From a virus, in IMG/VR virus record IMGVR_UViG_3300004154_000046, positions 1 to 24,336 of that record: a stretch of 24,336 nucleotides of DNA, one strand, 5' to 3'. Each line of letters begins with the position of its first letter. The stretch's first letter is position 1. Positions 9,897 through 24,184 of the stretch are shown here, piece after piece. Below the pieces are notes generated by a model, which worked only from the letters and a program-made list of their open reading frames with translations, did not search any database and was not told the DNA's origin. A program made the position numbers and the translations under genes.

Positions 9897-10373
9897 TCAG
9901 GCCGAAACACCCAGCACACGGGCCTGATCCCGCAACCGCTCAACCCGCTCAGTCAGCTCCCTATCGCTCATCTTTCGCCGGTCGACCGGCTTAACCAGCT
10001 GCAAGCCGGGGGTAGAGGCATCCTCCTGCCAATTCTCCAGCCCCTCGCCCAATCGCCGCAGCGCTGCCTTGGCCTGCTCTCGCGTCTGCTCGGAAAACTC
10101 CTCAATCTGCTGCGTGTTGTACCGGCCAACCACGGCAGGTTGACGATACGGCGCCGCCCATTCGCGCAACTCAGACACCCTCGGCCAAAATTTACAGCGC
10201 TTAATCGCCTCCGTAACCGCCAGATCAAACCCGCCATCAGCCAGATCCTGCAGGCCCCGCCAATACAACGCGGTCAGTTTATCCACATCATCAGCCGCCA
10301 GCTTATCCCCGCCAATCGGCCCGTAATAAACCGTCAGCAGCTTCATCCCCGCACTAAACGCCCTGGGCTGCAT
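9897..10373 (-). CDS. Putative helicase-loader-like replication protein
   Basis: A 158-residue protein. I use the ATG at 10373 (MQPRAFSAGMKLL), with GGAGG seven bases upstream; a longer frame to 10493 runs deep into the preceding gene. The N-terminal half has the pattern of phage helicase loader/inhibitor proteins: KLTALYWRGLQDL, then AVTEAIKRCKFWPRVSEL, close to the helix and FxP-x-ExL signature of the G39P type. The C-terminal half is charged and helical. It overlaps the 3' end of the replication-initiator-like gene by 20 bases, the same order as lambda O then P. The role is inferred from pattern and context. Confidence 0.55.
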   Translation of the reverse strand: MQPRAFSAGMKLLTVYYGPIGGDKLAADDVDKLTALYWRGLQDLADGGFDLAVTEAIKRCKFWPRVSELREWAAPYRQPAVVGRYNTQQIEEFSEQTREQAKAALRRLGEGLENWQEDASTPGLQLVKPVDRRKMSDRELTERVERLRDQARVLGVSA

Positions 10374-11214
10374 AAATCGCCTCCGTAACCCGATCAATCG
10401 CCGCACAATCGCTGCGCAACCGCTCAGATCGAGACTCAGGACTATCCCTGCCACGGGCCTGCGGTTTTGGTTTTCCCTCCAGCACAGAAACAACGTATTT
10501 CAGCGTTTTACCCCCCTGCATAGCCGTTATCTCAAAAGCGTCTTTGATTTTTTGTCGGGAATGCACCCGACACAACGCACTGGCCTGCTCGTTACAGCCT
10601 CCGGGCATCATCGTTCCCAGGTTTTGATGAAACAACCCCCGAAACTCGTTGATGGAAACCAACGACGACGACTCTTCCGCCTCAGTGGGGGGAAGGGGGG
10701 TAGTTGATGCTTGAGAAGAAGAGTCGTCGTTAAAGCCTTTAGGTTTTATCTGTTCTTCTTTCTTCTCTAAAGTCTGTTCTAAAGTCTTGCACGTTCCATG
10801 CGTTACGTTGCGTTCCTCATGCGTTCCGTTGCGTTCCTCATGCGTTCCGTTGCGTTCCTCTTGCGCTTTAAGTGCCTGTTTTTCCTTCCAGCGCTCTTTT
10901 CGCTCCTTTGCCGTTTCATCCTCCCGCACCGGCTGGCGTTTCTCCCAGTTGCAAATACGATCCGCCTCAATCATGCCTTTAGCTACCATGGCATCGTAGA
11001 CCGCCACCACCTGATCCAGTTCCAAATCCAGCACTACGGACACCTCTTCAAGATCAATCCCATCCAATGAGCCACGATCATTACGAGAGCTGGTAAATTC
11101 CAGCAACGCAGGCCAACAGGCTATTACTACGTGTCTGGGCTGCTTAGACCGCTTGGCGATTATCGAAAATTTAGGGTCAGCAACCGTGCCGTGATACCAC
11201 CTGAACCATTCCAT
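10354..11214 (-). CDS. Replication initiator (O-like / replisome organizer)
   Basis: A 286-residue protein. Residues 1-95 look like the winged-helix domain of phage replisome organizers (MEWFRWYHGTVADPKF ... DLEEVSVVLDL), including the GxIEADRICNWEKRQ wing ending. A charged linker follows with three near-identical EERNGTH/EERNVTH heptads (about residues 119-139) and a Ser/Thr/Pro-rich segment. The C-terminal part (KIKDAFEIT, KTLKYVVSVLEG) is common in these proteins and may contact the helicase machinery. The linker DNA has the layout of a replication origin (see separate entries). It precedes the helicase-loader-like gene, as in lambdoid phages. Confidence 0.65.
   Translation of the reverse strand: MEWFRWYHGTVADPKFSIIAKRSKQPRHVVIACWPALLEFTSSRNDRGSLDGIDLEEVSVVLDLELDQVVAVYDAMVAKGMIEADRICNWEKRQPVREDETAKERKERWKEKQALKAQEERNGTHEERNGTHEERNVTHGTCKTLEQTLEKKEEQIKPKGFNDDSSSQASTTPLPPTEAEESSSLVSINEFRGLFHQNLGTMMPGGCNEQASALCRVHSRQKIKDAFEITAMQGGKTLKYVVSVLEGKPKPQARGRDSPESRSERLRSDCAAIDRVTEAIYAAQGV
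10665..10730. repeat. Perfect 13-bp inverted repeat in the putative origin
   Basis: ACGACGACTCTTC at 10665-10677 and its exact complement at 10718-10730 flank 40 bases that hold two runs of six G separated by AA (10687-10700). It lies within the initiator-like gene and encodes two Asp/Glu-Ser clusters. In lambda an inverted repeat also lies beside the AT-rich part of the origin. Confidence 0.55.
10742..10859. other. Putative replication origin: iterons plus AT-rich tract
   Basis: Three 21-base direct repeats with the unit CATGCGTTCCGTTGCGTTCCT lie at 10797-10859; the first differs at one base. Each holds two GCGTTCC heptamers. Next to them, 10742-10790 is AT-rich with strong pyrimidine bias on the plus strand and a repeated TCTAAAGTCTGTT-like motif. 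Iterons, AT-rich tract and then inverted repeat, all inside the initiator gene, repeat the lambda origin plan. Confidence 0.55.
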
Positions 11215-11237: not shown

Positions 11238-12266
11238 TCAGCCTGCCAGCAAACGATCCAGCGGACTCGTCACGCTTGTAGATTTACCCATCACATGCAG
11301 ATATACCATTGTCGTCTCCAAGCACGAATGCCCCAGCAGATCCTGCACCTGCCGCACGTTATAGCCATCCTCCAGCAAATGCGTTGCAAAACTGTGCCGG
11401 AAGGTGTGACAACTGCCAGGGCTGGTAATGCCAGACTTCTGCACAGCCATTTTTACTGCCTTCTGCAACACCGTCTCATGAATATGGTGCCGCAGTGGCT
11501 TTTCAGGTGACGCCGCCCAGCGGGGATCAACACACGCCTTACGTGCCGGGAAAACCCAGTACCACCCCCAGGCAAACGGATAATCAGAATACTTCCTATC
11601 CAGCGCACCCGGCAGAGAAACACCGACACCATTGGCTACATCCTGCCGGTGCTGTTCAACCACACCCAACAGATGAGCTCGTAGCGGATCTGTCAGCGAG
11701 GCCGGTAGCGAGACAACACGGTCCTTATTCCCCTTACCTGCTCGGATCGTCACCGTCATCCGCTCAAAATCGACATCCTTCACCCGCAGCCCCAGACACT
11801 CATTCAGGCGCAAACCGCAGCCGTATAGCAGTTGGGCCATCAACCTGTCAGCGCCAAACATCTGCTTAAATACGGCAACCACCTCAGACTTAGTAAACAC
11901 TTCCGGCAACCGTTTTGGCTTCTTGGCTCTCACTCCGTTAATTGCTCCTAACTCACGAGGGAAAACGTGCTTGTAGAAAAACAACAGGGCATTAAACGCC
12001 TGATTTTGTGTTGATGCAGCGACATTCGCCTGCACAGCCAGATAGGTCATAAACTTTTCAATCTCTGGCCCGCCCATCTCAGATAATGGGCGCTTGTGGT
12101 GAAACTGGCTGAACCGGCGCACCCAATCACAATAGGCGTCTGCTGTTTTTGGACTGTAGCCTTTCACCCGGATAGTGTTACGGATCAGGTCCAGAACGCG
12201 AGGCTTGCCATCGGTCTGCTGCACAGGTTGCGAATGCGGGGTTGCGTTGTTTCGTAATGCGTTCAT
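11238..12266 (-). CDS. intI: Integron-type tyrosine recombinase (IntI family)
   Basis: A 342-residue site-specific recombinase. Catalytic residues are present: Arg153 (GCGLRLNECLGLRV), Lys in GKGNKDRVV, His287 and Arg290 (CHTFRHSFATHLLE), His313 (LLGHS) and Tyr322 (TTMVYLHV). Residues about 221-262 hold the extra segment that defines IntI proteins (FAWGWYWVFPA, then DPR and LRHHIHETVLQKAV), which ordinary phage integrases lack, and the end SPLDRLL is also IntI-like. AAAGGA lies before the ATG. It follows the accessory block and precedes the replication genes, all on the same strand. No clear attI or attC site was found nearby, so its substrate is unknown. Confidence 0.85.
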   Translation of the reverse strand: MNALRNNATPHSQPVQQTDGKPRVLDLIRNTIRVKGYSPKTADAYCDWVRRFSQFHHKRPLSEMGGPEIEKFMTYLAVQANVAASTQNQAFNALLFFYKHVFPRELGAINGVRAKKPKRLPEVFTKSEVVAVFKQMFGADRLMAQLLYGCGLRLNECLGLRVKDVDFERMTVTIRAGKGNKDRVVSLPASLTDPLRAHLLGVVEQHRQDVANGVGVSLPGALDRKYSDYPFAWGWYWVFPARKACVDPRWAASPEKPLRHHIHETVLQKAVKMAVQKSGITSPGSCHTFRHSFATHLLEDGYNVRQVQDLLGHSCLETTMVYLHVMGKSTSVTSPLDRLLAG

Positions 12267-12662: not shown

Positions 12663-12823
12663 TTAGTTCTCCCCTGCCCCTAACGGCTCAATCAACTCAG
12701 ACTTGCTAATTATGTCTGCAATTTCATCAGCTTCCTTGTCGTAAGTGATAACCAGTTCCGGTAGTGTCTCTTCGGTGCCGCAAGCTGGTTATCTCGGTCC
12801 TCGTTATAATGCTCTAGCCACAT
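12663..12823 (-). pseudogene. Short broken reading frame after the radical SAM gene
   Basis: An ATG at 12823, inside the end of the radical SAM gene, opens a frame (MWLEHYNEDRDNQLA) of good coding character that soon turns basic and stops. From about 12776, a neighbouring frame gives GTEETLPELVITYDKEADE and continues to a TAA at 12663 just before the next gene, but has no start codon. Joining the two by a one-base shift would give a small acidic protein of about 52 residues. It may be a frameshifted gene, a sequencing error, or coincidence. Confidence 0.3.
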
Positions 12824-13790
12824 CTTCAAATTTATGTGGCAGAGTTCCTGAAAGAATCGCGTTCCCGCATGTAATCCGCCCTGCATCCTCATCGTGGCTT
12901 GCAATGAAGGTCAGAACGTCGAACCCGACTTTCCGCAGTGCCTCTGCATGATGTTGATACGGGTACGGTGTCGTGTAGTCGCCTTCCGTCTGTATGCCGT
13001 TTTCAACAGCAACAGTCGTCTTGTGCATCGGAGTCAGCTTGCAGACAAAACGTGCGGGGTCAAATAAATCACGGAGTTTAACGGCGTCAATTTCGTAGCC
13101 AGCAACGGCAAAGTTCAGCGTGATTTTGCGGCCCTTCGGAAAATCCAGCGCCTCACCTATTCCCGCCACTTCCGACAATAACAGCGCATTGCCGCTGAAC
13201 ATGGTTTCCCGTTCTTCATCGTTTGTGGAATTGACAGAAATCTGCAACCCCGCATCGCCTCTGAAATCATGGTTCTTTATTTCCATCCAGTCAGCCAGAA
13301 AAGCAAACAGATTGCCGTTGTGTCGTGGCATCATTGTTGATACCACCGGATGAACCAAAGACCTCCCCACCAATGGTCGCACTTCATGGCGTATGTTTCG
13401 GGCGAAATCTAAAACAGCGGGGTTCCATGTGGGTTCGCCCATTCGCGCAAAATGCACGTTTAGCCGTTTTGTCGCTATTACTTCTGAATGCAGTGCCAGT
13501 CCGGTCAACACCTGATCCCGCAAATCTTCATAAGTGGCATTTATTCCCGGCCCTACTTTCGGCACGTCGCAAAACGTGCAACCCATCGAACAGCCGTATT
13601 GCGTGGAAATTGTGATTACCCATTTTTCCGACAGCGGCAAAAGCGGTGAACCGTCCGCTACCGGCTTGTTCTGGTTCAGGTTCACATCCTGCCCGTAGTC
13701 TGCTAGAGAAAGAAGCTCAAGCGGCCCCTTCGATGATTGGCACACTAGAATATTGCCTGTTGGTACTCGTAAATTTCGTATGATGTCCAT
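12804..13790 (-). CDS. RlmN/Cfr-like radical SAM protein
   Basis: A 328-residue protein from the ATG at 13790 (MDIIRNLRVP), chosen for AAAGGA upstream; an ATG at 13814 has no ribosome site. Cys67, Cys71 and Cys74 (CSMGCTFC) form the radical SAM iron-sulfur motif. FARMGEPTWNP matches the GMGEP motif of RlmN/Cfr methyltransferases, LQISVNSTNDEERETMF matches their SLHAxND region, and the late ITCGNA fits the C-terminal catalytic Cys (ACG). It lacks most of the N-terminal accessory domain and has no Ser-Leu-His match, so it is a divergent member. RlmN and Cfr methylate adenines in rRNA or tRNA; the target here is unknown. It follows the DHH gene. Confidence 0.75.
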   Translation of the reverse strand: MDIIRNLRVPTGNILVCQSSKGPLELLSLADYGQDVNLNQNKPVADGSPLLPLSEKWVITISTQYGCSMGCTFCDVPKVGPGINATYEDLRDQVLTGLALHSEVIATKRLNVHFARMGEPTWNPAVLDFARNIRHEVRPLVGRSLVHPVVSTMMPRHNGNLFAFLADWMEIKNHDFRGDAGLQISVNSTNDEERETMFSGNALLLSEVAGIGEALDFPKGRKITLNFAVAGYEIDAVKLRDLFDPARFVCKLTPMHKTTVAVENGIQTEGDYTTPYPYQHHAEALRKVGFDVLTFIASHDEDAGRITCGNAILSGTLPHKFEDVARAL

Positions 13791-13812
13791 GATTGTCCTT
13801 TCGTAGATTCGC

Positions 13813-13818
13813 ATTATA
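13813..13818 (-). promoter_or_regulatory. Candidate -10 box of the radical SAM gene
   Basis: TATAAT on the minus strand, 23 bases before the chosen start and directly after the hairpin and T-rich stretch. No good -35 box is seen 17 bases upstream. It suggests that the radical SAM gene can be transcribed separately from the DHH gene. Confidence 0.35.
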
Positions 13819-13852
13819 ACAAAACGTAGCAGCAGGCGATAAGGCCCGCTGC
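13818..13852 (-). terminator. Candidate intrinsic terminator after the DHH gene
   Basis: In the leftward direction GCAGCGGGC and GCCTGCTGC form a 9-bp stem with one mismatch and a 6-base loop (13829-13852), followed by TACGTTTTGTT. The T-run is short, so termination may be partial. It falls between the DHH stop codon and the candidate promoter of the radical SAM gene. Confidence 0.45.
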
Positions 13853-13874
13853 TGTACTAAAGCCGTTGTAACGC

Positions 13875-14587
13875 TCAGGCAGCGTCTCTTGTAAATCCGG
13901 CAGCGTTACGATGACCGCCCCCGCCGAACTGTTTGGCAATGGCGGACACGTCGAACTCTCCGATTGACCGCAGAGAATATGACCGCTTTCCGTCTGCTCG
14001 GTCGCAATAAGAGGCGCTGAAATCCGCTTCTGGGAACTTCTGACAGAGTTGGTTCCCGACCTCAGAAATGTTGTCAGAGAGATTAAGCACCGGCACTTTA
14101 TAACCGCAGATTTCCTCCCACCGTACATTCCGGCAGGCCCTGTCAACTTGTGAATCTCGGAAAGCCTTGATTGCGTCGCCAGAAATGAGAGCCTTCGACA
14201 GATCAAACTCATCCCATGCGTCAAAGGTTTGATCCAGCGTAGCAATGTAAAGGAGTCGCCATTGAAAAAATGCTCCCACGCCAAGACAGCACCGGATTTT
14301 TGCAGGGCGAAAGTGACGTAAGGCAGCCCCTCTAATTCCTTCCAAGCTGTCTTGTGGTGGTCAATGACAGTGAGTTTGTATTTTCCGGCGAGTGCCTCAC
14401 AGGTTGCACGATCATAGGAAAAATCGACAACGAACAACTCCTCTATCGTTTCTGGCAGTTCAGGCACTGGTTGCCTGTACTGGACAGGCCGGAAGAATAT
14501 CTTTTCGTCAGAGTCAAAAGCCTTCCAGCAGGCATAAGCGGCCCCGAATCCATCAGCATCATTGTGGTAAAGTACGGCTGTTTTCAT
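13875..14587 (-). pseudogene. DHH-family phosphoesterase, split by a -1 frameshift
   Basis: The frame starts at the ATG at 14587 (MKTAVLYHNDADGFG) with CAGGGGG upstream. HNDADGFG (residues 8-15), DFSYD (55-59) and DHHKTAW (76-82) are the metal-binding motifs of DHH phosphoesterases. The match breaks near residue 107, at six T in the coding strand (14265-14270), and resumes in the -1 frame with LLYIATLDQTFDAWDEFD. That frame runs to the DHHA1 motif GGGGHRNAAGF and a stop at 13875. Together they give a full DHH-DHHA1 protein of about 237 residues. The break is at U-UUU-UUC, a legal -1 slippery site, so it could be programmed, a mutation, or a homopolymer error. Confidence 0.72.
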
Positions 14588-14629
14588 GGTGGTAATTCCC
14601 CCTGTAATGGTAATCGCGTTACAACCAGC

Positions 14630-14671
14630 GGCACGACCCGACCGCTCAAAACCCGGCGGACGGGTCGTGCC
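14630..14671. repeat. Perfect 11-bp inverted repeat overlapping a gene end
   Basis: GGCACGACCCG (14630-14640) and CGGGTCGTGCC (14661-14671) flank a 20-base loop and span the stop codon of the 133-residue gene. No T-run follows in the leftward direction, so it is not a standard terminator. It could stabilise the transcript end or act as an RNA barrier before the DHH gene. Confidence 0.5.
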
Positions 14672-15047
14672 ACAGGCCCTCCAACCATGCATCTCTGGCG
14701 TCAAAACCATCATCCGTCGCAGCGATTTTGTATTCGACAAAATCCGGTTGCCCAATAGCGCCCTTTGCTATACCTCTCCGTTCCTCGGTAATCGTTATAA
14801 ATCCGATCTCCGGCAGTTTTGTAAGCCAGAAATCGAACGGCACCCACTCGCATTCAGCCTTGCCAAAAAACACATCGGCACGGTTTGAGTACTTTATGAC
14901 GTGAGTGTTTCCGCCTGCAAACCACGCCAGAAATGCGTTTCTCTCGGTGTTGGTCAAATCGAGGATGGAGGATAACAAGAGGGTGGACCGTTCTTTTGCC
15001 TCCGTTACTGCTTCCCCCCGCTCGATTGCATCTTTTTCGTTGTTCAT
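14646..15047 (-). CDS. Hypothetical protein, 133 residues
   Basis: Begins at the ATG at 15047 (MNNEKDAIERGEAVTEAK), with AAGGAGAAGG before it; a Met seven codons upstream has a poorer site. After a charged helical N terminus the protein has the pattern LTNTERNAFLAWFAGGNTHVIKYSN and then EWVPFDFWLTKLPEIGFITITEERRG, suggesting a small mixed alpha/beta or winged-helix domain. No family recognised. It is upstream of the DHH gene in the same direction and probably transcribed with it. Confidence 0.6.
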   Translation of the reverse strand: MNNEKDAIERGEAVTEAKERSTLLLSSILDLTNTERNAFLAWFAGGNTHVIKYSNRADVFFGKAECEWVPFDFWLTKLPEIGFITITEERRGIAKGAIGQPDFVEYKIAATDDGFDARDAWLEGLWHDPSAGF

Positions 15048-17394: not shown

Positions 17395-17616
17395 TCAGGC
17401 TCCTTTCTCCATCAACTCCAAATAATCCGGCTCACGGTCACCGCATTCCGGCTTAGGCCGGTCCTCCAGCATTGCCGCCGTTTCCTTTTGTCTGTGCAAT
17501 ACCTCTCCCCTGCAGTAGGGAGAGAGCTTACAGCGTGCGCACTCTGAGCCATCCGGTTCTACCGGTTTTCGGCGAGCACGCTTGCGGGGGTATATGCGGG
17601 GAAGAGAGGGGGGCAT
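17395..17616 (-). CDS. Small cysteine-containing protein, 73 residues
   Basis: The ATG at 17616 overlaps the stop of the preceding gene (TGATG). The N terminus is Pro/Arg-rich (MPPSLPRIYPRKRARRKP), followed by CARCKLSPYCRGEV, with three cysteines that could form a zinc site together with a fourth Cys in KPECGDRE. Function unknown. Overlaps and spacing place it in one operon with its neighbours. Confidence 0.55.
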   Translation of the reverse strand: MPPSLPRIYPRKRARRKPVEPDGSECARCKLSPYCRGEVLHRQKETAAMLEDRPKPECGDREPDYLELMEKGA

Positions 17617-18104
17617 CAGGCCGCAAAAAACTTCAGCGTCTCAGCAATCGGCAGAACCTGTCTGTTGCCATACTGCAGCACCTGCTCAACTTTCCGCATG
17701 CTTGATGCCGCGCTCATCTGCCCGATTGCTCCGCACAGGCTCATAGTGGCGTTATGTTGCACCATCAAATCATTGGGCAGTTTGTCAAAATCAGCCACCG
17801 CAGCCAACGTAGCGCGTATTTTTTTGGTTATTCTGGTAATGCGCCGTAACTGGTCACCGGCTACCTGCACCTTCTGAGCGTCGGTCAAACGCTGCAGCCC
17901 TTGATTTTCAACCGGTGCAAATACCTTGCTATCCCGCATAAGCCCTTTACGGGCGGCTGCCATTATGTGCCGGTGCTGCCGAACATCCCGGCCTATCAAT
18001 GCAGACATCTGCTGATAGGTAAGCAGTTCACCAACTTCCAGTTTGCTGAGGGCATCTAAAATAATTTTTGCATCAATACCCATCTGAAACACCGTTGTTG
18101 CCAT
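17616..18104 (-). CDS. Early phage protein, 162 residues, possible winged helix
   Basis: Starts at the ATG at 18104 (MATTVFQMGIDAKIILDAL) with GAGAGGAC upstream. A longer frame to 18197 runs through the pentamer array and is rejected. Residues about 25-60 (VGELLTYQQMSALIGRDVRQH) resemble a winged-helix DNA-binding segment of the alkyltransferase type, and the rest is helical (LRRITRITKKIRATLAAVADF). The gene follows array A, whose end lies 22 bases upstream of the start codon. Function unknown. Confidence 0.6.
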   Translation of the reverse strand: MATTVFQMGIDAKIILDALSKLEVGELLTYQQMSALIGRDVRQHRHIMAAARKGLMRDSKVFAPVENQGLQRLTDAQKVQVAGDQLRRITRITKKIRATLAAVADFDKLPNDLMVQHNATMSLCGAIGQMSAASSMRKVEQVLQYGNRQVLPIAETLKFFAA

Positions 18105-18125: not shown

Positions 18126-18209
18126 ATCCCTTGTCTTGCCTTGCCTAGCCCTGCCGGGTCCTGCCATGCCTCGTCGCGTCCCGCCGAGCCTCTCCATTAC
18201 CTGCTATTC
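18126..18209. repeat. Degenerate period-5 array A
   Basis: On the plus strand the stretch divides exactly into 5-base units starting ATCCC, TTGTC, TTGCC, TTGCC, TAGCC, CTGCC and ending CTGCT, ATTCA. Thirteen of the 15 units after ATCCC and before ATTCA have G at position 3, and nearly all end in C, while positions 1 and 2 vary freely. Read in the leftward direction the core is GGCNN. The AACG-flanked end GCTATTCAAACG (18203-18214) is also found at the end of array B. No coding frame explains it. Confidence 0.8.
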
Positions 18210-18237
18210 AAACGTTAATATCTCAATTATTTAATAC

Positions 18238-18341
18238 ATCCCTTGTCTTGCCATGCCTGGTCTCGACCTGCCCAGTCTTGCCATGCCGAGCCGTGCCGAG
18301 CCGGGACAGGCCAAGTCCGGCCTTGCTATGCTATGCTATTC
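18238..18341. repeat. Degenerate period-5 array B
   Basis: Twenty-one exact 5-base units on the plus strand: ATCCC, TTGTC, TTGCC, ATGCC, TGGTC and on to ATGCT, ATGCT, ATTCA. All 19 units between the first and last have G at position 3; sixteen end in C and three in T. Positions 1 and 2 include most base combinations. The right end overlaps the last codons of the RAMP-like gene, whose stop is at 18336. Between A and B lies only an AT-rich spacer of 24 bases and the shared GCTATTCAAACG. Confidence 0.8.
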
Positions 18342-18893
18342 AAACGCCACTATTTCCGCATCAAACCTGCCATAGAAGCCGTTATTTCTTGGTCTGAAAC
18401 GCCCCATACCGATAAACTTGCCTGCCTGGTCCAGATGCAAATCCAGCACATCCTGGGTAATGGTTTCATCCAGTACATAAATGGTTGCAGTTGCCTGCCA
18501 CTGGGGGATAATCGGAAAACATTTCTCTACCCGGCTGCCCGATCCTCTCCGGCCATCAGAAGGAACAAACAACCACTCACCCGATACTTCATCGGCCTTT
18601 ATACCCAGATCAAGTGGTTCTAAAACCAATAAGCCCGCCTCAAAATGCTTGGTATAGTTGGCCTTGCCTTTACCAGGCACCTGAATCCCTAAAAATTTTG
18701 CACACTCAGACAGACAGTTTTTAAGCGCCATCTGAGGAATAATCACCATGCCGGTCTCGTTTACATGCAACCTGTCTCGCCATGTCCGTTTTTCGTAATC
18801 CTTTGGCAGCTCCTTTGGCAGCTTATCTGTGGTGTAATGCCTGCTTTGGCTATATGGAGATACCGATGTAAGCCTTACCTGTGCTGTTTTCAT
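18336..18893 (-). CDS. Prophage protein with suspected RAMP/Cas7-like fold, 185 residues
   Basis: Starts at the ATG at 18893 (MKTAQVRLTSVSPYSQSRHY) with GGAGGAG upstream. The N terminus has the strand-plus-SPYSQS pattern of RAMP-type RNA-binding proteins. The middle holds conserved-looking MALKNCLSECAKFLG, VPGKGKANYTKHFEAGLLV and WLFVPSDGRRGSGSRV. The end has DLHLDQAGKFIGMGRFRP and NNGFYGRFD, a G-x-G-RxRP-x3-G-x-YGRF ending that recalls Cas7-like domains. I recognise the general form from proteobacterial prophages but know no assigned function. It is the only gene flanked on both sides by period-5 arrays. The fold is a guess from pattern; structure prediction would decide. Confidence 0.6.
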   Translation of the reverse strand: MKTAQVRLTSVSPYSQSRHYTTDKLPKELPKDYEKRTWRDRLHVNETGMVIIPQMALKNCLSECAKFLGIQVPGKGKANYTKHFEAGLLVLEPLDLGIKADEVSGEWLFVPSDGRRGSGSRVEKCFPIIPQWQATATIYVLDETITQDVLDLHLDQAGKFIGMGRFRPRNNGFYGRFDAEIVAFE

Positions 18894-18915
18894 GTTTCAC
18901 TCCTCCTTTTTTAAT

Positions 18916-18977
18916 ATCCCTTGCCTTGCCTTGCCCCGCCTCGCCCGGCCTGGCCATACCAAGCCCAGCCTCGCCAC
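18916..18977. repeat. Degenerate period-5 array C
   Basis: Plus-strand units: ATCCC, TTGCC, TTGCC, TTGCC, CCGCC, TCGCC, CGGCC, TGGCC, ATACC, AAGCC, CAGCC, TCGCC, then a decayed ACACT. Ten of the 11 units after ATCCC keep G at position 3, and all end in CC. It starts with the same ATCCC-TTGYC-TTGCC run as arrays A and B. It lies in the untranslated leader of the RAMP-like gene, ending 22 bases before its start. Confidence 0.8.
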
Positions 18978-23101: not shown

Positions 23102-24184
23102 ATGGCCGTCCGCCCACACCCCTCAAAAACCACCCCTGGCATCTGGCAGATTGATTACTGGCCTACTGGTCGCAAAGGCAAGCGGATCTACGAAACATTT
23201 GAAGGCACCCGCGAAGCAGCCGAACAACGCCACACCGAACTATGTCTGCAACACTCCAGCGCCCACCGCAGCCTGATCAGCCCCAGACTGGAAGAGGTAA
23301 TTACTGAATATCTCACCTGGCTACAACTGCACCGCTCCCCGGCCTATTACAAAAGCATGGTCTGGGCGCTGGATAAACTGAAACCGGTCTTTGGCAGGCA
23401 TCCTATAAAAAATATCACCCCGGTGCTTTTTGATGAATTCAAAACCCTACACAAAGACACCCCGGCCCACTGCAACCAATGTATAGACTACCTGAAGGCA
23501 ATCATAGGCTGGATGGTAAAACGAGGATATGCCCAACCGCTGCCGTTTGCTGTTGAAAAATTGCGCCACTTTCGCAGCATCCCCCAACCACCAGACCCGT
23601 CAGAGTTTCTAAAGTTCTTTCAACAGGTACAGCACAACTTGAGCAAAGAGGGTATAACACCGCAAGAACGCGACAAAAAAGAGCTGTTGGTATTACTGAT
23701 ATATGAAACCGGGTTGCGCTGGGTAGAGGCACGACACCTGCGCTGGGAACATCTACGCAATGACGGACGCCTGTATCTGGGCAGAACAAAAACCGGTGAA
23801 GCACGGTACACCGTCCTACCCGACTACATGGTGCAGCGCCTGTGGGTATACCATCAGCCCACTGGATACATCTTCATCAATCCCAAAACCGGCAACCCCT
23901 ACACCACCATCCGTAAGCTGATCCAGGGTGCCAGAGAGAAGGCAGGCGTCAACGTAAAAGGCACCCACGGCCTGCGCCACGCAATGGGTACCGACACCCA
24001 GGAATCAAGCGGAGACATTCGCGCAACACAGGATATTCTTGGGCACTCAGACATAAAAACATCAGCAAAATATGCACATGTAGCAATAGGCAGGAAAAGA
24101 CGAATATTGGAAGAAACGCGGGTATGGCGGTCTGAACAAATCAAGAGCGCAAAAAAGGTTGACACAAACCCCTCTGCTGAGTAA
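23102..24184 (+). CDS. int: Phage integrase, tyrosine recombinase
   Basis: A 360-residue protein starting at ATG (MAVRPHPSKTTPGIWQIDYW), with AAGGAT upstream. The N terminus fits an arm-binding domain and residues 60-140 the core-binding SAM-like domain. Catalytic residues are Arg206 (ETGLRWVEARHL), Lys230 (RTKTGEARYTV), His289 and Arg292 (HGLRHAMGTDTQ), His315 (LGHSD) and Tyr324 (AKYAHV). It lies next to the attachment site and reads toward it, the usual place for the enzyme that inserts and excises the prophage. It is distinct from the integron-type recombinase at 11238. Confidence 0.92.
   Translation: MAVRPHPSKTTPGIWQIDYWPTGRKGKRIYETFEGTREAAEQRHTELCLQHSSAHRSLISPRLEEVITEYLTWLQLHRSPAYYKSMVWALDKLKPVFGRHPIKNITPVLFDEFKTLHKDTPAHCNQCIDYLKAIIGWMVKRGYAQPLPFAVEKLRHFRSIPQPPDPSEFLKFFQQVQHNLSKEGITPQERDKKELLVLLIYETGLRWVEARHLRWEHLRNDGRLYLGRTKTGEARYTVLPDYMVQRLWVYHQPTGYIFINPKTGNPYTTIRKLIQGAREKAGVNVKGTHGLRHAMGTDTQESSGDIRATQDILGHSDIKTSAKYAHVAIGRKRRILEETRVWRSEQIKSAKKVDTNPSAE

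What the first reader, a model, noticed from the sequence alone, without database searches (positions are those of the whole stretch)
18126..18977. Three degenerate period-5 arrays in one early operon
Arrays A, B and C (about 15, 19 and 11 units) keep an exact 5-base phase and a G/C framework (plus strand NNGYC, leftward GGCNN), yet the first two bases of each unit vary almost freely. Slippage would give identical units; here three positions are held and two are free, which suggests selection on spacing or on a set of contacts. All three start with ATCCC-TTGYC-TTGCC. In the leftward message they are two leaders and one 3' region. I know of no described element with these features.
Basis: seen in the sequence. 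Interest (0 to 1): 0.85.

Follow-up and report, generated by a model that had tools for sequence, protein, structure and literature searches.

The report
Phage RNA-guide arrays (VIPR system)
The three odd period-5 stretches are almost certainly guide-RNA arrays of VIPR, an RNA-guided, CRISPR-like weapon that phages use against each other (described in a 2026 preprint), and comparing about 110 relatives suggests which protein residues read the fixed bases of the guides.

Summary
The window holds three degenerate arrays, leftward-strand GGC/NN, phase-exact and far above chance. The 185-aa gene between them (18336-18893, -) has a confident RAMP/Cas7 fold (pLDDT 96; the 50 best PDB entries are all CRISPR RAMPs). 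The next gene (17616-18104, -) encodes a winged-helix-like protein. Of 78 loci with this gene, 76 have the same period-5 arrays. Each phage uses one fixed triplet and two free positions. This matches VIPR (PMC13142463, bioRxiv 2026): Vipr protein, Vap protein, and vrRNA guides whose NN pairs read DNA with a 1-nt skip. The same array caller found four arrays beside the RAMP gene of phage SUSP1 (one upstream, three downstream), as that paper reports. The finding is therefore a new member of a known kind. Two results go beyond the preprint's main text. (1) The fixed triplet covaries with Vipr residues 111/126 (base 1) and 165 (base 2); this was tested on fresh relatives and against phylogeny. (2) One relative's guide (L267) matches rival vipr genes in frame, 23/24 bases, with skips at codon wobble positions. 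Targets of the window's own three guides were not found.

The parts
18916..18975 (-). Array C: vrRNA-like guide of about 12 GGC/NN units ending 20-25 nt before the vipr start codon
18336..18893 (-). vipr: 185-aa RAMP-fold protein (Cas7-like), proposed guide-RNA-binding subunit
   Evidence: AF2 pLDDT 96.4; PDB hits all CRISPR RAMPs, Z 12.4; family profile hits the SUSP1 RAMP gene
18238..18337 (-). Array B: vrRNA-like guide of about 18-20 units directly after the vipr stop codon
18126..18195 (-). Array A: vrRNA-like guide of about 14 units directly before the accessory gene
17616..18104 (-). vap-like accessory gene: 162 aa, winged-helix-like N-terminal part plus helices; homologue present in 71 of 78 related loci
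18202..18214 (-). 13-nt copy (CGTTTGAATAGCA) of the 3' end of vipr, just before array A; suggests that arrays are gained by copying a segment that began in the end of vipr
   Evidence: sequence; 12-nt core located
18334..18346 (-). Original of the 13-nt segment: end of vipr and start of array B

Best explanation
This is a VIPR locus of a phage. The leftward operon yields guide RNAs (vrRNAs) from arrays C, B and A. Vipr (the 185-aa RAMP protein) polymerises along each guide, one subunit per 5 nt. It holds the fixed GRC triplet and presents the two free bases. The free dinucleotides, read in order with one skipped base between them, pair with double-stranded DNA of a competing phage or other mobile element, and the complex represses the gene there, helped by the winged-helix accessory protein. 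Shown here: the arrays, the RAMP fold, the conserved association, hypervariable versus fixed positions, the accessory gene, homology to the SUSP1 system, and covariation of Vipr residues with the fixed triplet. Taken from the preprint and inferred for the window: guide processing, filament formation, the 1-nt skip and repression. Not shown: what the window's own guides target.
For: Arrays near the gene in 76 of 78 loci; median period-5 statistic 7.3 near the gene versus 3.0 elsewhere and 2.4-2.7 for periods 7 and 4. RAMP fold. The same array caller applied to SUSP1 finds one array upstream and three downstream of a RAMP homologue, GGT/NN, as the preprint describes. The accessory-gene profile hits the SUSP1 neighbour gene, E 4e-5 in a small database. 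Covariation: base 1 = C against residue 111 N/H or 126 Y agrees in 105 of 109 phages; all 74 phages with middle base G keep R165, and 15 of 16 that lack R165 have middle base A; none of 1000 tree simulations reaches either agreement, and both held on 38 fresh relatives. A natural guide in L267 matches rival vipr genes in frame, 23 of 24 bases at skip 1.
Against: No transcript data for this phage. No convincing target of guides A, B or C in IMG/VR. Apart from the L267 guide, skip-1 matches in the local set are at or near background level. The preprint is not peer reviewed and its supplement could not be read, so the VIPR type is not assigned.
Confidence: 0.93

Rival explanations
1. A TRAP-like autoregulatory leader: a ring or filament protein made by the operon binds the period-5 triplets in its own mRNA to control translation, and the free bases carry no information.
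For: Period 5 with three fixed and two free bases resembles TRAP sites (own knowledge); arrays often end 20-25 nt before the vipr start codon; Vipr residues covary with the fixed bases, which this model also predicts.
Against: Arrays also lie downstream of vipr and in runs of up to 7 or 8 per locus. Phages about 93% identical keep some arrays and replace others wholesale. The ordered free bases of one array spell a match to vipr genes. The fold is RAMP, not TRAP.
Confidence: 0.04
2. A DNA-level element, such as operator clusters, a replication or recombination site, or a nucleation site for a ssDNA-binding protein.
For: In L009 the operon also holds RecT-, exonuclease- and SSB-like genes (by eye); the accessory protein looks DNA-binding.
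Against: The arrays follow the RAMP gene rather than any origin or att site; the one-strand orientation, conserved 3' ends and hypervariable NN fit an RNA guide better; the related SUSP1 arrays are transcribed and co-purify with Vipr (PMC13142463).
Confidence: 0.02
3. A decaying microsatellite produced by slippage, without function.
For: Local runs of identical units (TTGCC x3, TGCTA x3) exist in the window.
Against: The same layout occurs across phages whose Viprs are only about 50% identical, with different triplets but the same period and free positions; the triplet tracks protein residues.
Confidence: 0.01

Closest known systems
VIPR of Escherichia phage SUSP1 (PMC13142463)
   Same: RAMP gene plus a small predicted DNA-binding accessory gene, flanked by intergenic arrays of fixed triplet/NN pentamers on the gene strand; the Vipr profile built here hits the SUSP1 protein.
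   Different: Triplet GRC here, GGT there; the SUSP1 RAMP is too divergent for pairwise tblastn and has Asp where the window has R165; the window's arrays have a short conserved 3' end, with no sign yet of the pseudoknotted SUSP1 tail; targets unknown.
Cas7-family backbone subunits of Class 1 CRISPR (Csm3, Cmr4, type VII Cas7)
   Same: Same fold over the whole 185 residues (Z about 12), with a conserved glycine-rich loop.
   Different: No CRISPR repeats, no other cas genes, guide period 5 instead of 6, single RAMP domain.
TRAP-binding leaders
   Same: Fixed triplets separated by two free bases on RNA (own knowledge).
   Different: Different fold, different triplet, arrays on both sides of the gene and free bases that carry target information.

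Membership tests
VIPR | Small RAMP-fold protein (about 20 kDa) in a minimal locus | tested here: met
   185 aa; AF2 pLDDT 96.4; top PDB hits all CRISPR RAMPs
VIPR | Homology to a published Vipr | tested here: met
   Family profile hits the SUSP1 RAMP gene flanked by the four arrays, E 5e-13 in a small six-frame set; the identity of that gene as the published Vipr is inferred from its position
VIPR | Arrays of about 9-16 YNNGG (GGY/NN) pentamers | tested here: met
   14, 18-20 and 12 units of GRC/NN; array B is slightly longer than the published range
VIPR | Fixed triplet, hypervariable NN across relatives | tested here: met
   Composition by phase in 76 loci; wholesale array differences between near-identical phages
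VIPR | Arrays in intergenic regions flanking vipr | tested here: met
   Arrays in 76 of 78 loci; within 200 bp upstream in 49 of 74 and downstream in 57 of 76
VIPR | Adjacent vap gene, DNA-binding in some types | tested here: met
   Homologue in 71 of 78 loci; profile hits the SUSP1 neighbour; winged-helix-like model, PDB matches weak
VIPR | Conserved 3' tail after the repeats | tested here: inconclusive
   Shared array end RCAAG(G) in most GGC/GAC arrays (127 of 160), but no structured tail was tested
VIPR | Guides match mobile-element DNA under the 1-nt skip rule | tested here: inconclusive
   One guide of a relative (L267) does, 23/24; none found for the window's three guides
VIPR | vrRNA expression, RNP formation, silencing | not testable with these tools
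   needs wet-lab work
CRISPR-Cas Class 1 | CRISPR repeat-spacer array and several cas genes | tested here: not met
   No such repeats found in the window by the tandem-repeat scan; neighbours have no convincing Cas match at Pfam or PHROGs
TRAP leader | (G/U)AG triplets and a TRAP-fold protein | tested here: not met
   Triplet GRC; RAMP fold

The most novel reading that the evidence does not exclude
Within this VIPR clade the fixed triplet is a scaffold code read by identifiable Vipr residues: positions 111 and 126 set base 1 (G or C) and R165 in the glycine-rich loop, with E106, is needed for G at base 2. Phages have switched triplets many times, so co-infecting VIPRs may use mutually unreadable guides, and some guides (L267) attack rival vipr genes at their most conserved motif.
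Probability: 0.7. Interest if true: 0.72.

Novelty: new member of a known kind. Interest (0 to 1): 0.62.

Why it matters
VIPR was reported only in 2026 and is proposed to be a forerunner of CRISPR. The window adds a metagenomic phage VIPR with three guides. Its relatives give a large clade in which the fixed triplet varies, and that turns the question of how Vipr recognises its guide into a directly testable set of residue-base pairs. It also gives a natural example of a guide aimed at a rival's vipr gene.

Tried and rejected
Targets of the window's guides: 8-dinucleotide gapped patterns for A, C and B (two halves) in IMG/VR gave 2, 12, 69 and 21 matched stretches, and extension to the full guide gave only chance-level continuation. 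Self-targeting of each phage by its own guides: no excess over shuffled guides. First local test of skip rules: 6 versus 0-2 matches, too few to be convincing. Exact search for a longer part of the L267 guide's target in IMG/VR: none. Other guides against vipr genes: only the L267 guide stands out. Pairwise search of annotated phages with the window protein: no hit; a divergent member (L012) found two weak relatives, LESphi2 and Trine, which also have period-5 arrays. Coding: the 193-aa ORF that runs through array A is a mechanical extension of the accessory gene, whose own start at 18104 has an upstream purine-rich site; a 5-base period does not fit translation. Absence of TRAP-like or other folds among the VIA rows is not used as proof. 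PADLOC has no match for Vipr.

Full report
What is in the sequence. The three arrays are real: best (NNGYC)n scores of 40.6, 32.8 and 27.4, against at most 13.2 in 100 Markov simulations, and no further array of this kind in the 24.3-kb virus record. Read on the leftward strand, which carries the genes, they are arrays of GRC followed by two free bases. All three end in GGCAA GRCAA GGGAT. Array C ends just before a 185-aa gene, B starts at that gene's stop codon, and A ends just before the next gene. Array A is preceded by a 13-nt copy of the last bases of the 185-aa gene, the same bases that precede array B, as if A arose by copying a segment that started inside the gene.

Relatives. 77 homologues of the 185-aa protein from IMG/VR and GTDB genomes were compared with it. 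The period-5 composition statistic near the gene has a median of 7.3 per degree of freedom, against 3.0 elsewhere in the same loci, and 2.7 and 2.4 for periods 4 and 7. Arrays are present in 76 of 78 loci; the two without are contigs that end at the gene. Within a phage the arrays share one triplet on one strand. Between phages the triplet differs: GGC in 40 loci, GAC 11, CGC 9, GTC 4, GTT 3, and a few others. Closely related phages keep some arrays unchanged and replace others entirely, and the alignments break at the arrays. Most GGC and GAC arrays end in RCAAG (127 of 160), so the shared end seen in the window is a clade feature.

The protein. AlphaFold2 with 69 sequences gives pLDDT 96.4 and pTM 0.88. 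The 50 best PDB entries are all CRISPR RAMP proteins (type VII Cas7, Csm3, Cmr4 and others), Z up to 12.4 over 158 of 185 residues. The accessory gene's product has a homologue in 71 of 78 loci and a confident model with a winged-helix-like N-terminal part and long helices, with only weak PDB matches, many of them DNA-binding regulators.

What it is. A library search found PMC13142463 (bioRxiv 10.64898/2026.04.26.720920), which describes VIPR: a phage RAMP protein (Vipr), an accessory protein (Vap) and guide RNAs of 9-16 YNNGG repeats whose NN pairs recognise DNA with a 1-nt skip. Running the array caller used here on phage SUSP1, the preprint's model, finds four arrays with GGT/NN, one upstream and three downstream of a two-gene unit. 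The family profile hits the RAMP gene there, and the accessory profile hits its neighbour. The window is therefore a VIPR locus, a new member of that kind. Type assignment needs the preprint's supplement, which was not available.

A residue code for the triplet. In the first set, R165 (glycine-rich loop, GxGRFRP) and E106 were invariant in GGC phages and lost in about half of the GAC phages, and C-first triplets went with P111N/H or F126Y. These two rules were then tried on 38 fresh relatives with readable arrays, fetched afterwards. All 8 without R165 have middle base A, and all 26 with middle base G have R165. All 18 C-first loci carry the residue change and none of the 20 others does. On a tree of all 110 proteins, agreement is 105 of 109 for base 1. 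For base 2, none of 74 middle-G phages lacks R165, and 15 of the 16 phages that lack it have A. None of 1000 simulations of label evolution on the tree reaches the observed agreement. Limits: presence of R165 does not exclude A (9 middle-A phages keep it), two CTC phages break the base-1 rule, two others carry the change without C, and SUSP1 has Asp at the position of R165 with middle G (by eye), so the code is specific to this clade. The triplet of each locus is itself an automatic reading of the arrays, and several loci have a poorly conserved base. Whether these residues touch the bases is inferred.

Targets. None of the window's guides has a convincing target in IMG/VR. In the local set of about 4 Mb (both strands), one relative's guide stands out. 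The array after vipr in L267 reads CG CC AG AA AA GG TA TA GG AG TT GA, which at skip 1 matches the codons for RPRNNGYYGRF in the vipr genes of other phages (23 of 24 bases in L228 and L057) with every skipped base at a wobble position; its own vipr gene matches only 19 of 24, mainly because it uses the other arginine codon family. This supports the 1-nt skip rule for the clade and fits the preprint's statement that some guides target other VIPR systems. It is a single case; the other guides are at or near background, and an exact longer target was not found in IMG/VR.

Verdict. Observation confirmed. The interpretation (contacts at three positions, not slippage) is right in spirit but missed the guide function, and the element has been described. 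What is new relative to the preprint's main text is the triplet-residue covariation and the worked example of an anti-vipr guide.

Noticed in passing
window 11238-12266 (-): An integron-type integrase (TIGR02249, 374 bits against a cut-off of 265) lies in this phage genome, in addition to a phage integrase at 23102-24184 (+).
   Followed up: partly
window 13814-14755 and 13875-14345 (-): What looks by eye like one DHH-type phosphoesterase gene is split over two overlapping frames near 14345: a frameshift, sequencing error or recoding.
   Followed up: no
window 12804-13814 (-): A radical-SAM protein with weak similarity to RlmN/Cfr methyltransferases, far below the family cut-offs.
   Followed up: no
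window 10797-10865: Near-exact 21-base tandem repeat inside the gene 10354-11214 (-) that adds NGTHEER-type heptapeptides.
   Followed up: no
L267:3589-3700: Guide whose dinucleotides match the conserved RPRNNGYYGRF stretch of rival vipr genes in frame; its own vipr uses other arginine codons, as if to avoid self-targeting.
   Followed up: partly
L044:4479-4863, L079:6043-6593, L088:5562-5760: Arrays separated or followed by conserved spacers with hairpin potential (for example GGGAAGCG...CGCTTCCC in L044), possible processing or tail elements.
   Followed up: no
L100:4294-4612 and L101:4195-4417: Pseudomonas phage LESphi2 and Gordonia phage Trine have period-5 arrays next to divergent Vipr homologues annotated as hypothetical proteins.
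   Followed up: partly
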